From Roseomonas sp. OT10 (GTDB lineage Bacteria; Pseudomonadota; Alphaproteobacteria; Acetobacterales; Acetobacteraceae), in contig NZ_CP087719.1 in assembly GCF_020991085.1 (NCBI RefSeq), forward strand, positions 4,174,001 through 4,238,000: a stretch of 64,000 nucleotides of DNA, written 5' to 3'. Positions 2,257 to 45,608 of this stretch are shown piece by piece (position 1 is the stretch's first letter; each line of letters begins with the position of its first letter). Under the pieces are notes generated by a model. The model saw only the letters and a program-made list of their open reading frames with translations, was not told the origin of the DNA and made no database searches. The translations under genes were made by a program, and so were the position numbers.

Positions 2257-2692
2257 TGATGCGGGCGGCGCGCCGGGCTGCCCCGTGTTGGCCGTTGCGC
2301 CCACTCCCCGGGGGCAAGGCTCCGCCTCGCCCCCGATACCCCCACTCCGCCAGGACCCTGCGGGCCCTGGACCCGATCGGCGCTGCCGCGGGACAGCCTG
2401 CGACGGGGTCGAGGCGCCGAGGAGTCATGCTCCTCGGCGGGACCGGTCGCCGCACTCGCTGACGCCCTCTGAAAGCTTTTTTCAGAGTTCCACCTGTCCA
2501 CGTTCCGTCAGGGCTGAGCCCGGAGGCTGACGCTCACCACGGAGAGCCAGACTCCCAGCGGGGACCGGGGCCCGCTTGTGGCCCCGGCGGAGGGGGGTCC
2601 GAGGGGGAGGCAGCGCCTCCCCCCGGTCCGACGCTACCGGACAAGCGACAAGGGGCGGCGCGGAACAGGCTGCCTTGCGGCGATCCGCGTCA
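2257..2692 (+). repeat. intergenic TIR/hairpin element, copy 1
   Basis: 436-bp copy of the dispersed element, lying between convergent acs and the ABC permease. It shares with the other copies the block from CCCCGGGGGCAAGG through the CGCCGAGGAG/CTCCTCGGCG hairpin (one loop-side change here) to GGGGCC/GGCCCC. Near its right end the usual GGGAGGGGAC/GTCCCCTCCC hairpin is replaced by a GGGGGAGGC/GCCTCCCCC one. The left terminus TGATGCGGGCGGCG matches the family terminus. The right terminus, read on the minus strand (TGACGCGGATCGCCG), is divergent but coincides with the stop codon of the permease at 2690-2692. Confidence 0.75.
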
Positions 2693-3586
2693 GCCTTTCG
2701 GCGCCATGCGTTGCGCGCGCCGCCGCTGGATCAGCAACATGGAGCCCAGCGCCACGCCGATCACCAGCAGCGACATGCCCGTGGTGACCGTGCCGAGGGC
2801 GTAGATCTCCGGCGTCGTCACCGTCGTGGTCAGCCCTTGCAGTTCCAGCGGCAGGGTGTTGCGGCCGCCGATCGCCTGGCTGGTGCGCGCCACCTCGTCC
2901 CAGGACAGGGTGAAGCCGAACAGCGCCACGCCGACCAGGGAAGGGGCGATGATCGGGATGACCACGTGGCGCAGGACTCCGCCGGGGTTGGCGCCCAGGT
3001 CGCGCGCCGCCTCCTCATAGGCGGGGTTGAAGCGGTTGAAGACGGCGAAGAGGATCAGCAGGCCGAAGGGCAGCGTCCAGGTCAGGTGCGCGCCCAGCGC
3101 GGAGGTGTAGAGCCCGGCCGCCGTCTCGTAGCCCTTCAGGAAGCCCCAGCCGGTGCTCTCGGCCAGCGCCTTGATCGCGTCATCGATCAGCCGGAACTCC
3201 AGCCCGATGCCCAGCGAGACGACGATGGAGGGCACGATCAGGCTGGCGATGGTGACGTAGAACAGCGCGGACTGGCCGGGGAAGCGCTTGCGGAAGGCGA
3301 GGCCCGCCGGCAGGGCGAAGGCGACGGTCAGCAGCATCACCACCACCCCGAGGCGGAAGGAGCGGCCGAAGGCGGCCCAGATGTCCACCACCCCCACCCC
3401 CTGCCACAGGCGGGAGAACCAGTAGGTGGAGACGCCGTTCATCGGGAAGGTCAGCCCGCCCGAGGGGCCCTGGAAGCTGAGGACCATGATCGTCAGGATC
3501 GGGCCGTAGAGGAACAGCACGAAGAGGGTGAACAGCGCTGCCAGCCACCAGAAGGCGGCGGGGCGCCTCTCGCCATGCTTATTCAT
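2690..3586 (-). CDS. ABC transporter permease (PotC-type)
   Basis: Inner-membrane permease of a polyamine/iron-type ABC importer, 298 residues. One N-terminal membrane segment (about 12-33) is followed by a BPD_transp_1 domain with about five further segments. The ATPase-docking loop EEAARDLGANPGG lies in the second half, as expected for PotC/YdcV proteins. It is the last gene of the minus-strand set binding protein (4551-5822), ATPase (5819-6850), PotB-type permease (3601-4542) and this permease. The gap to the PotB-type gene is 14 bp, which suggests one transcript. Its stop codon coincides with the end of repeat copy 1. Confidence 0.9.
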   Translation of the reverse strand: MNKHGERRPAAFWWLAALFTLFVLFLYGPILTIMVLSFQGPSGGLTFPMNGVSTYWFSRLWQGVGVVDIWAAFGRSFRLGVVVMLLTVAFALPAGLAFRKRFPGQSALFYVTIASLIVPSIVVSLGIGLEFRLIDDAIKALAESTGWGFLKGYETAAGLYTSALGAHLTWTLPFGLLILFAVFNRFNPAYEEAARDLGANPGGVLRHVVIPIIAPSLVGVALFGFTLSWDEVARTSQAIGGRNTLPLELQGLTTTVTTPEIYALGTVTTGMSLLVIGVALGSMLLIQRRRAQRMAPKG

Positions 3587-3600
3587 GGGAACGGCTCACG

Positions 3601-4542
3601 TCACAGCTCCCGCCGGATGTCGACGAGGCGCGTCAGCGCCCAGATCATCATCAGCACGATGCCCAGCAGCACCACGGCGTTCGCGGCGGCGATGGGAAAT
3701 TGCAGGTAGCTCATCTGCACCTGGATCACCTTGCCGACGGACGCGATCTGCTGCCCGCCCATGATGCCCACCGTCACGAAATCGCCCATCACGATGGTCA
3801 GCACGAAGATCGAGCCGATGACGATGCCCGGCTTGCACAGCGGCACGATCACGCTCCACAGCGTCTGCCAGCCGCTGGCGCCGCCGTCGCGCGCCGCCTC
3901 GATCAGCGAGCGGTCGATGCGCGCCATGGAGTTGAAGATCGGCACCATCATGAACAGCGTGTAGAGGTGGACGAAGGCGAGCGTGACCGAGAACTCGGAA
4001 TAGAGCAGCCAGTCCAGCGGGCCGCTCGTCACGCCCAGCGCCTGCAGCGTCTGGTTGACCAGCCCGTTGCGGCCCAGCAGCGGGATCCAGGCGATCATGC
4101 GGATCACGTTGGAGGTCCAGAACGGCACCGTGCAGACCAGGAACAGCGCCATCTGCACCGTGGTCGAGCGGATGTGGAAGGACAGGAAGTAGGCGATGGC
4201 GAAGCCCAGCACGAGGGTGATCGCCCAGACGATCAGGCTGAAGCGCAGCGTCGAGAGGTAGGTCGCGAAGGTGACGCAGAGGTCGGGCAGCTTCGCCAGG
4301 CAGCCGTCGAAGACCTCGCGGTAGTTGTCCAGGGTGAAGGCCGGGTTGATGGAATACTCGGTGTACTCCCAGAAGGAGACCATCACCGTCAGCGCCAGCG
4401 GCACGACGAAGAAGACCAGGAAGACGGCGGCGAAGGGCAGCGCCTGCCACAGCCCGGTGCGGCGCCGGGGCGCCGCGGACCTGGCAACCGGGGCACCCAC
4501 CCCGGCCGCGACCGTTCCGGCCGAGCCGGGGTGGATGTCCAT
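3601..4542 (-). CDS. ABC transporter permease (PotB-type)
   Basis: Partner permease of the same importer, 313 residues from the chosen ATG. The docking loop IEAARDGGASGWQ sits near residue 215, and hydrophobic segments occur near 37-58 and throughout the second half. I chose the ATG at 4542 because it follows the binding-protein stop by 8 bp and has TGAGGT as ribosome-binding site. An upstream start at 4575 would overlap that gene by 25 nt. Substrate specificity cannot be read from the permeases. The pairing with a PotD-like protein suggests a polyamine or a related cation. Confidence 0.9.
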   Translation of the reverse strand: MDIHPGSAGTVAAGVGAPVARSAAPRRRTGLWQALPFAAVFLVFFVVPLALTVMVSFWEYTEYSINPAFTLDNYREVFDGCLAKLPDLCVTFATYLSTLRFSLIVWAITLVLGFAIAYFLSFHIRSTTVQMALFLVCTVPFWTSNVIRMIAWIPLLGRNGLVNQTLQALGVTSGPLDWLLYSEFSVTLAFVHLYTLFMMVPIFNSMARIDRSLIEAARDGGASGWQTLWSVIVPLCKPGIVIGSIFVLTIVMGDFVTVGIMGGQQIASVGKVIQVQMSYLQFPIAAANAVVLLGIVLMMIWALTRLVDIRREL

Positions 4543-44132: not shown

Positions 44133-44145
44133 TGGACGACCGCTG

Positions 44146-45192
44146 ATGGACGGAAGCATGCCCGCCGGTGCCGTTGCGGCAACCGAGACGGTCCTGGAGG
44201 TGCGCGGCCTGCGCAAGCACTTCCCGATCCGCAAGGGGCTGCTCCGCTGCGTGGTCGGGCAGGTCAAGGCGGTGGACGGGGTGGACCTGACCATCCGGCG
44301 CGGCGAGACGCTGTCCCTGGTCGGCGAGAGCGGCTGCGGCAAGACCACCGTCTCCCGCTGCATCTTGCGCGCCCTCTCGCCCAGCCAGGGCTCCATCCGC
44401 TTCACCGTTGCCGGCCGCACGCACGAGCTGGCGGGAATGTCGCGCCGCCGCCTGCGCCCGCTGCGCCGGCATATCCAGATGGTCTTCCAGGACCCCTACG
44501 CCTCGCTGAACCCGCGCATGGTGGTGGGCGAGATCATCGGCGAACCGCTGCTGATCAACGGGATGCGCGACCGCGCCGAGCGCCGCAAGCGGGTGCTGGA
44601 GCTGATGGAGATGGTCAGCCTGCCGCCGGCCGCCTTCAACCGCTTTCCGCACGCCTTCTCCGGCGGCCAGCGCCAGCGCATCGGCATTGCCCGGGCCCTG
44701 GCCCTGAACCCCAGCCTGATCGTGGCGGACGAGCCTGTCTCCGCGCTCGACGTCTCCGTGCAGGCGCAGATCCTGAACCTGATGCTGGACCTCCAGGACC
44801 GGCTGGGCCTGACCTATCTCTTCGTCGCGCACGACCTCAGCGTGGTGAAGCACGTCAGCGACCGCGTGGCGGTGATGTATGTCGGCCGGCTGGTGGAGGT
44901 GGGCGAGACGGAGGCTCTCTTCGGCCGCCCGCTGCACCCCTATACCGAGGCCCTGCTCTCCGCCGCCCCCGTCCCCACCCCGGACGCGGTCAGCACCCGC
45001 ATCATCCTGGAGCGCGAGATCGCCGACCCGGCCAACCCGCCGCCCGGCTGCCCGTTCCATCCGCGTTGCCGCTACGCCGAGGCCCGTTGCCGGGTGGAGG
45101 TGCCGGCGCTGGAGGAGGTTCTGCCAGGTCGGCAAGTGGCCTGCCTGCGGGCCAGGGAACTGTCCCTGCAAGGGGTTCCCGAAACGGCCTGA
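44146..45192 (+). CDS. ABC transporter ATP-binding protein (DppF-type)
   Basis: 348 residues. Walker [11 protein letters not shown]-loop [14 protein letters not shown], signature [15 protein letters not shown], Walker [13 protein letters not shown] and the C-terminal [17 protein letters not shown] cysteine motif are all present. It is the last gene of the oligopeptide-type operon. Its TGA stop is the first codon of repeat copy 5. ATG at 44146 lies 13 bp after the DppD stop. The longer frame upstream has no homology. Confidence 0.92.
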
Positions 45193-45608
45193 TACGGATG
45201 GCGGAATGTGTTGATCCGTGCCGGCGGGGTGCCCGTTCCCCGGGGGCAAGGCGCTGCCTCGCCCCCGTACCCCCACTCCGCCAGGACCCTCCGGGCCCTG
45301 GACCCGATCGGCGCTGCCGCGCGGCAGTCTGTGACGGGGTCACGGCGCCGAGGAGCCATGCTCCTCGGCGGGTACGGCCACCGCCCTCGCGGACGCCTGT
45401 AACTCTTTTCCAGAGTCCCGCCTGTCCGCATTCCGTCAGGATTCAGCCCGGAGGCTGACGCTCACCACGGAGAGCCAGACTCCCAGCGGGGACCGGGGCC
45501 CGCTTGCGGCCCCGGCAGGGGAGGGTCTGGGAGGGGACGGCGTCCCCTCCCGGCCCGCCGCCGGAACACCACAGCGCGACCGGTCAGGTCATCCAGCCGC
45601 CGGTATGA
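45190..45608 (+). repeat. intergenic TIR/hairpin element, copy 5
   Basis: 419-bp copy between convergent dppF-type and ScfR-type genes. The left terminus TGATACGGATGGCGGAATG starts on the dppF-type stop codon. The right terminus, read on the minus strand, is TCATACCGGCGGCTGGATG, so the two ends are clear inverted repeats (13 of 19 positions). All internal hairpins are intact. The right end lies 76 bp from the regulator stop. That gap holds nothing recognisable. Confidence 0.87.

What the first reader, a model, noticed from the sequence alone, without database searches (positions are those of the whole stretch)
2257..45608. A dispersed ~420-bp element with terminal inverted repeats and several hairpins, five copies in 43 kb
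Seen: copies at 2257-2692, 6965-7379, 26648-27070, 31952-32376 and 45190-45608 (436, 415, 423, 425, 419 bp) share long blocks over their whole length, in both orientations. The clearest ends are TGATACGGATGGCGGAATG, TCATACGGGCGGCGGGATG and TGATCCCGACGGCGGGATG, which are inverted repeats of one another. Internal hairpins (CGCCGAGGAG/CTCCTCGGCG, GGGGCC/GGCCCC, GGGAGGGGAC/GTCCCCTCCC) are kept. Inference: a non-autonomous (MITE-like) or gene-conversion-maintained family, not a known IS or REP by my reading.
Basis: partly seen in the sequence, partly recalled or inferred. Interest (0 to 1): 0.88.

Follow-up and report, generated by a model that had tools for sequence, protein, structure and literature searches.

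The report
Paired-triplex mobile repeat at gene ends
About two hundred copies of a small mobile DNA element sit just after genes in this bacterium, often between two genes that face each other; each carries two mirrored structure-forming blocks that stay almost unchanged while the element's own ends decay, which suggests the blocks now do something for the host.

Summary
The five copies are real, the coordinates nearly exact, and about 210 copies lie in the genome. The unit is about 424 bp, bounded by imperfect TACSGACGGCGGGATG inverted repeats and a 3-bp TNA target duplication: 35 of 42 copies with TNA at both ends have identical trinucleotides, against 18.4 by shuffling. That TNA is usually a gene's stop codon (28 of 35; 21.4 expected from TNA sites in the same gaps). 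It is a MITE with IS1031-like target use; no autonomous parent was found. The inside is not inert: two inverted half-units (hairpin A, linker, hairpin B) are 97-98% conserved while terminal repeats are 76-83%. The linker is a mirror repeat of hairpin B's purine arm and changes with it (own 9.6 of 11, swapped 7.1), the layout of a class I intrastrand-triplex motif. The half-unit occurs in 12 of 60 genomes sampled, own included. In three species elements concentrate in convergent gaps; none was assigned to a divergent gap. Best reading: a MITE, parent unknown, that spread an older paired-triplex module now kept at gene 3' ends. The role is untested; E. coli triplex elements reportedly lack terminator activity.

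The parts
2257..2692 (+). copy 1; profile homology 2257-2636 only; the stated right end (TCA 2690-2692) is the stop codon of the minus-strand gene 2690-3586, but no clear terminal repeat remains there
6964..7379 (+). copy 2; TCA at both ends; right TCA (7377-7379) is the stop codon of the minus-strand gene 7377-8024
26648..27070 (-). copy 3; left TGA is the stop codon of the plus-strand gene 25571-26650; other end reads CGA
31952..32376 (-). copy 4; left TGA is the stop codon of the metE-like gene 29606-31954; profile homology ends at 32349, then about 24 bases without a recognisable terminal repeat up to the stop codon (32374-32376) of the convergent gene 32374-33168
45190..45608 (+). copy 5; TGA at both ends; left TGA is the stop codon of the gene 44146-45192
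7015..7077 (-). left half-unit of copy 2, core only (hairpin B from 7015, linker, hairpin A 7057-7077)
7269..7327 (+). right half-unit of copy 2, core only (hairpin A 7269-7291, linker, hairpin B 7305-7327)
7122..7146 (+). central hairpin of copy 2, CGCCGAGGAG/CTCCTCGGCG

Best explanation
A MITE family. A DDE-type transposase with IS1031-like target use (not found, possibly lost) moved a 424-bp non-autonomous unit into TNA sites and made a 3-bp duplication. Because TGA stop codons are a large share of the TNA sites in GC-rich gaps, most surviving copies sit on a stop codon and regenerate it, so the gene stays intact. The cargo is an older, wider module: two inverted half-units, each a hairpin plus a class I intrastrand-triplex motif, around a centre with a further hairpin. 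After insertion the half-units were kept by selection while terminal repeats and spacers decayed. The likely use is at gene 3' ends, above all between convergent genes, as a symmetric block met the same way by either transcript (3'-end protection, or stalling of a polymerase). Shown: ends, duplication, gap bias, conservation contrast, pair covariation, mirror covariation. Inferred: transposase type, selection rather than conversion, the 3'-end role.
For: Duplication: 35 of 42 TNA pairs identical, shuffle mean 18.4, maximum 30 in 20,000. Empty sites: of 91 copies 35 had clean ends and an identical TNA; of these 28 fall on a stop codon, 7 elsewhere between genes, 0 inside a called gene. The IS1031 group uses TNA with an exclusive 3-bp repeat (passage of PMC12016507). 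Conservation in 45 copies: half-units 0.983 and 0.966, terminal repeats 0.826 and 0.760, spacers 0.83-0.87. Covariation: 8 of 14 predicted pairs changed on both sides over 17 half-units of seven genomes. Mirror: own 9.61 of 11 over 83 distinct units, swapped 7.11 (4332 swaps), shuffled linker 7.05 (stricter finder: 9.43, 7.04 and 6.98 over 47). Place, elements in convergent/tandem/divergent gaps: 32/17/0 plus 1 unassigned (G000), 18/9/0 (G003), 17/8/0 plus 2 unassigned (G012). Half-unit in 12 of 60 genomes, 6 of 24 genera, own included.
Against: No autonomous element with these ends. E. coli PIT/BoxC elements are reported to lack promoter and terminator activity, and footprinting did not support stable triplexes in vivo (passages of PMC4666352). 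No clear orientation bias: of 31 copies with an end on a stop codon, 12 have the gene reading into one side and 19 into the other (my count). Canonical terminators are rare in the elements (9 of 100 strand-tests in G000, 9 of 54 in G003, 14 of 54 in G012). 35 of 91 copies had poor ends and 21 no identical TNA. The stretches were picked around hits to one copy and to the central hairpin, which inflates density and the conservation of that hairpin. Several triplex arms contain C, which is not a canonical triad.
Confidence: 0.72

Rival explanations
1. Plain MITE: half-units are alike only because the master copies needed them for transposition; inserted copies have no function, and the gap bias is purifying selection against insertions elsewhere.
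For: Absence from called genes and divergent gaps is what tolerated insertions would show; sharp ends and duplication.
Against: The terminal repeats, which a DDE transposase should need, are the least conserved part (0.76-0.83) while half-units are 0.97-0.98 in the same copies; half-units are also the best-kept part in relatives that lack these terminal repeats.
Confidence: 0.2
2. Gene conversion between copies keeps the half-units alike, without selection on each copy.
For: Many copies with hairpins; triplex motifs have been linked with genomic instability (abstract of PMC4666352); 3 of 5 orthologous G003/G012 pairs (0.79-0.80) are little above the 0.757 of non-orthologous pairs.
Against: Conservation drops sharply at half-unit edges in the profile (by eye); covariation and mirror covariation point to structure; 2 of 5 orthologous pairs are 0.91-0.93, so copies are not fully homogenised.
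Confidence: 0.12
3. A REPIN/BIME: an inverted REP pair moved by a RAYT.
For: Inverted paired hairpins in about 200 intergenic copies, often after genes.
Against: No PF01797 match in the genome, while the same search rings in 5 of 14 control genomes; terminal repeats and a 3-bp duplication; half-units of about 70 nt with two hairpins.
Confidence: 0.04

Closest known systems
Bacterial MITEs (RUP, NEMIS/Correia, Nezha and others)
   Same: No coding capacity, terminal inverted repeats, target duplication, many copies, structured (description in passages of PMC3733652 and PMC2229807).
   Different: Longer (424 bp) and GC-rich; 3-bp TNA duplication mostly on stop codons; interior more conserved than the ends; interior is a wider module.
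IS1031 group of the IS5 family
   Same: TNA target with an exclusive 3-bp repeat (passage of PMC12016507). This genome has a 956-bp IS5-type element in 12 copies at least 99% identical; the four copies whose two ends I read show TCA, TCA, TGA or TAA on both sides.
   Different: That element's ends are GAGCCTGATCCG-type, not TACSGACGGCGGGATG.
PIT / BoxC / TM-ECO intrastrand triplex motifs
   Same: Hairpin plus a mirror-repeat third strand, GC-rich, intergenic, sometimes close inverted pairs that always join two subtypes (PMC4666352 sections 15 and 18).
   Different: Class I order (third strand, purine, pyrimidine) instead of E. coli class II; an added hairpin A; regularly paired around a centre; in this species part of a unit with terminal repeats and duplication; found after genes, whereas TM-ECO lies more often upstream.
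REP / BIME / REPIN
   Same: Inverted palindromes, many copies, gaps between genes.
   Different: No RAYT match in the genome; larger unit; target duplication.

Membership tests
MITE | terminal inverted repeats with sharp ends | tested here: met
   56 of 91 copies keep both repeats at 12 of 16 or better
MITE | target-site duplication | tested here: met
   35 of 42 TNA pairs identical, shuffle mean 18.4
MITE | many dispersed copies | tested here: met
MITE | no coding capacity | tested here: met
   the distance between two conserved anchors falls in all three frames (34, 22 and 21 of 77 copies measured), so no reading frame is kept across the element
MITE | ends match an autonomous transposon | tested here: not met
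   not found rather than excluded, since only two transposase families were searched, in the own genome alone
IS1031-derived MITE | 3-bp TNA duplication | tested here: met
   rule from the passage
IS1031-derived MITE | terminal repeats like an IS1031-group element | tested here: not met
   against the copies in this genome only
Intrastrand triplex motif (class I) | third-strand mirror repeat of the purine arm beside a hairpin | tested here: met
   some arms contain C, and three small groups score 7.3-8
Intrastrand triplex motif (class I) | folds as a triplex | not testable with these tools
   needs CD, NMR or footprinting
REPIN/BIME | associated RAYT | tested here: not met
   own genome only
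Intrinsic terminator | GC hairpin followed by a T run | tested here: not met
   9 of 100, 9 of 54 and 14 of 54 strand-tests in G000, G003 and G012

The most novel reading that the evidence does not exclude
A class of transposable, bidirectional gene-end insulators: paired intrastrand-triplex modules occupy a large share of convergent gaps in this bacterial family, are spread between gaps by transposition onto stop codons, and each copy is then kept because it separates two converging transcription units.
Probability: 0.28. Interest if true: 0.85.

Novelty: new variant of a known kind. Interest (0 to 1): 0.6.

Why it matters
It joins two things usually described apart: a MITE with clear transposition marks, and conserved triplex-forming motifs of unknown role. 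About two hundred natural insertions in one genome, many of them between convergent genes, make it possible to test what such motifs do at gene ends by 3'-end mapping and deletion.

Tried and rejected
Strong stop-codon targeting: a first impression from the window. Modelled against TNA sites in the same empty gaps most of it is expected (17 of 25 against 14.4, p 0.04; 28 of 35 against 21.4, p 0.002), so only a modest excess is claimed.

Conserved positions across species: scfR has an element on its 3' side in G000, G003, G004 and G012, not in the 55% homologue of G009, but over 14 and 17 ortholog pairs G000 shares positions no more than chance (1 against 0.86; 1 against 0.71), while the close pair G003/G012 shares 10 of the 16 gene 3' ends that have an element in either.

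Parent transposon: PF13340 (26 matches) and PF01609 (34 matches, 30 fetched) were scanned for flanking repeats; weak pairs turned up in five of 56 loci, none at a mapped IS end. The terminal repeat is enriched in no other genome (0-2 matches in each of 14 genus relatives against 90 here; 0-1 in each of 199 family genomes against 82 here). Six outside matches examined have no partner repeat above 13 of 16; no full element lies there, but L111 has a partial match.

RAYT: none in the own genome. Canonical terminators: 14 of 214 gene 3' sides in G000, no contrast there; in G012 convergent gaps with an element have more (8 of 32 against 2 of 28), in G003 not (4 of 36 against 4 of 38). Plasmid collection: no match to copy 5; viral collection: no exact match to a 27-base piece of the half-unit. 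Within this genome compensation in hairpins A and B is too rare to judge. Five G003/G012 presence/absence pairs were aligned: most were too diverged to read; one pair shows a 'with' and a 'without' state but no clean TNA junction.

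Full report
OBSERVATION. Pairwise identity is 84-90%. In copies 1 and 4 the profile match stops 56 and 27 bases short of the stated right ends. The window lies at C1:4174001-4238000 of a 5.69-Mb, three-contig genome. The central-hairpin pattern, at up to 3 mismatches, matches 221 times forward and 209 times reverse, the backward control 0 and 0. The pattern is near-palindromic, so a copy can match on both strands; 45 of 45 copies checked carry it, hence about 210-220 members. 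The 39 long matches to copy 2 listed besides itself are 86-92% identical; only 40 of 391 candidates were scored. The 100 places listed are all on C1; the rest were not listed.

ENDS. Alignments of 57 distinct copies and of 91 show homology starting and stopping abruptly at TNATACSGACGGCGGGATG and its reverse complement, 424 bp apart in the consensus. The outermost trinucleotide is not part of the inverted repeat: if it were, TGA on the left would go with TCA on the right. Instead TGA goes with TGA and TCA with TCA. Of 91 copies 56 keep both repeats at 12 of 16 or better; 42 of these have TNA on both sides and 35 of the 42 are identical (18 TGA, 16 TCA, 1 TTA); shuffling gives a mean of 18.4 and a maximum of 30 in 20,000. 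This is a 3-bp TNA target duplication. Neighbouring bases suggest a CTNAG core (C in 24 of 35, G in 26 of 35).

STOP CODONS. I called genes with a hexamer model trained on the fetched DNA. In the window copies 2, 3, 4 and 5 have a terminal-repeat end on the stop codon of a called gene; copy 1 does so only at its eroded end. For the metE-like gene and the TctC-type gene the Pfam domains run nearly to the C-terminus (775 of 782 and 355 of 359 residues), so the stop looks native rather than made by the insertion. Over 44 full copies, 31 have an end on a stop codon. Among 35 clean copies with joined empty sites, 28 duplications are stop codons, 7 lie elsewhere between genes and none inside a called gene. 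Random choice among the TNA sites of the same gaps would give 21.4 (p 0.002); an earlier, smaller test gave 17 of 25 against 14.4 (p 0.04). TNA use in GC-rich gaps explains most of the coincidence, with a modest excess.

PLACE. In fetched DNA of three species, elements by gap type are: G000 32 in 58 convergent gaps, 17 in 266 tandem, 0 in 54 divergent, 1 unassigned; G003 18 in 52, 9 in 214, 0 in 45; G012 17 in 47, 8 in 204, 0 in 44, 2 unassigned (a gap with two elements counts twice). Fisher p for convergent against the rest is 1e-9 or less in each. Most stretches were chosen near hits, so densities are inflated. The 220-kb stretches of G003 and G012, fetched around scfR except for one 20-kb piece each, hold 8 elements in 26 and 8 in 25 convergent gaps, and 3 and 2 elsewhere.

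INSIDE. Two inverted half-units flank a centre with a further hairpin. Each half-unit is hairpin A, a linker and hairpin B. In the 45 copies lying in the stretches and window, mean identity is 0.983 (left half-unit) and 0.966 (right), 0.826 and 0.760 in the terminal repeats and 0.83-0.87 in the spacers; the central hairpin (0.962) had also been a search key. So the parts a transposase should need have decayed and the half-units have not. In relatives, too, the half-units are the best-kept part. Across 17 half-units from seven genomes of the genus 8 of 14 predicted pairs have changes on both sides. No reading frame is kept across the copies.

MIRROR. Read outward, the linker is a mirror repeat of the purine arm of hairpin B, for example GGCAGGGGAGGG-TCT-GGGAGGGGACGG. 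Over 83 distinct linker/arm pairs the own match is 9.61 of 11; linkers swapped between dissimilar units give 7.11 (4332 swaps) and shuffled linkers 7.05. A stricter finder gave 9.43, 7.04 and 6.98 over 47 pairs. Three small groups lie at or below 8 (G035 7.5, G047 7.33, Gy 8.0), and halves were missed (157 of 182 found in the 91 copies). This is the layout of a class I intrastrand triplex motif as defined in PMC4666352, of which I saw the outline with abstract, sections 15 and 18, and passages. That paper reports close inverted pairs of such motifs in E. coli, always of two subtypes; here too the two halves differ in hairpin A (CCAGG..CCTGG and CCGGGG..CCCCGG). It also cites work in which these motifs had no promoter or terminator activity, and its own footprinting did not support stable triplexes in vivo; this counts against a simple terminator role.

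DISTRIBUTION. A covariance model of the half-unit matches 12 of 60 genomes sampled, own genome included, in 6 of 24 genera; the search used strict filters and gave no control. Of the 18 loci from other genomes printed, 11 show, by eye, the inverted pair (L314-L319, L324, L325, L327-L329), most with a long central palindrome; 7 look like single halves (L311-L313, L320, L321, L323, L326). The 424-bp element's terminal repeat, by contrast, is enriched only here: 82 matches against 0 or 1 in each of 199 other family genomes, and 90 against 0-2 in 14 genus relatives.

PARENT. 25 of 25 own-genome loci fetched for an exact terminal repeat are ends of this element. None of the 56 fetched PF13340/PF01609 loci carries it at a mapped IS end. 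The genome has a 12-copy IS5-type element whose inspected copies show TNA duplications, as the IS1031 group does (passage of PMC12016507), but its ends differ. There is no PF01797 match. Other transposase families were not searched.

READING. The element is best called a MITE family with IS1031-like target use and an unknown, perhaps lost, transposase. Its cargo is an older paired hairpin-triplex module. The contrast between kept half-units and decayed ends argues that individual copies are kept after insertion, most plausibly for something at gene 3' ends. I cannot show which: 3'-end protection, polymerase stalling and simple tolerance remain. None of the papers listed or read describes this element as far as I saw; the searches were made, in an open-access library only.

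Noticed in passing
G000:C1:241513-241815 (L079): A second, diverged subfamily (about 70% identical, hairpin CGCCGGGGAG/CTCCCCGGCG) occurs in the same genome.
   Followed up: partly
11 of 91 copies, e.g. L071:15720, L087:4944: A subfamily carries a small extra palindrome (TCGACGCACGGCGTCGA) inside hairpin B; 1 of 54 relative elements (G012_345001:198483) has a similar one.
   Followed up: partly
G000 C1 and C2, e.g. L262:1338-2293: A 956-bp IS5-type element in 12 near-identical copies, 9 of them on C2; the 12 listed plasmid matches are 83-87% identical and mostly annotated as IS5 family.
   Followed up: partly
window 29320-29565: Cobalamin riboswitch match upstream of the cobalamin-independent methionine synthase gene at 29606.
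   Followed up: no
window 26600-46000: No canonical T-tailed terminator in 19.4 kb, where shuffles give 3.8; a similar pattern was found at 14 of 214 gene 3' sides in G000.
   Followed up: partly
3' side of scfR in G000, G003, G004, G012 (L218-L221): All four orthologues have an element of this wider family downstream, the more distant G009 homologue (L222) does not; shared positions are at chance level overall.
   Followed up: partly
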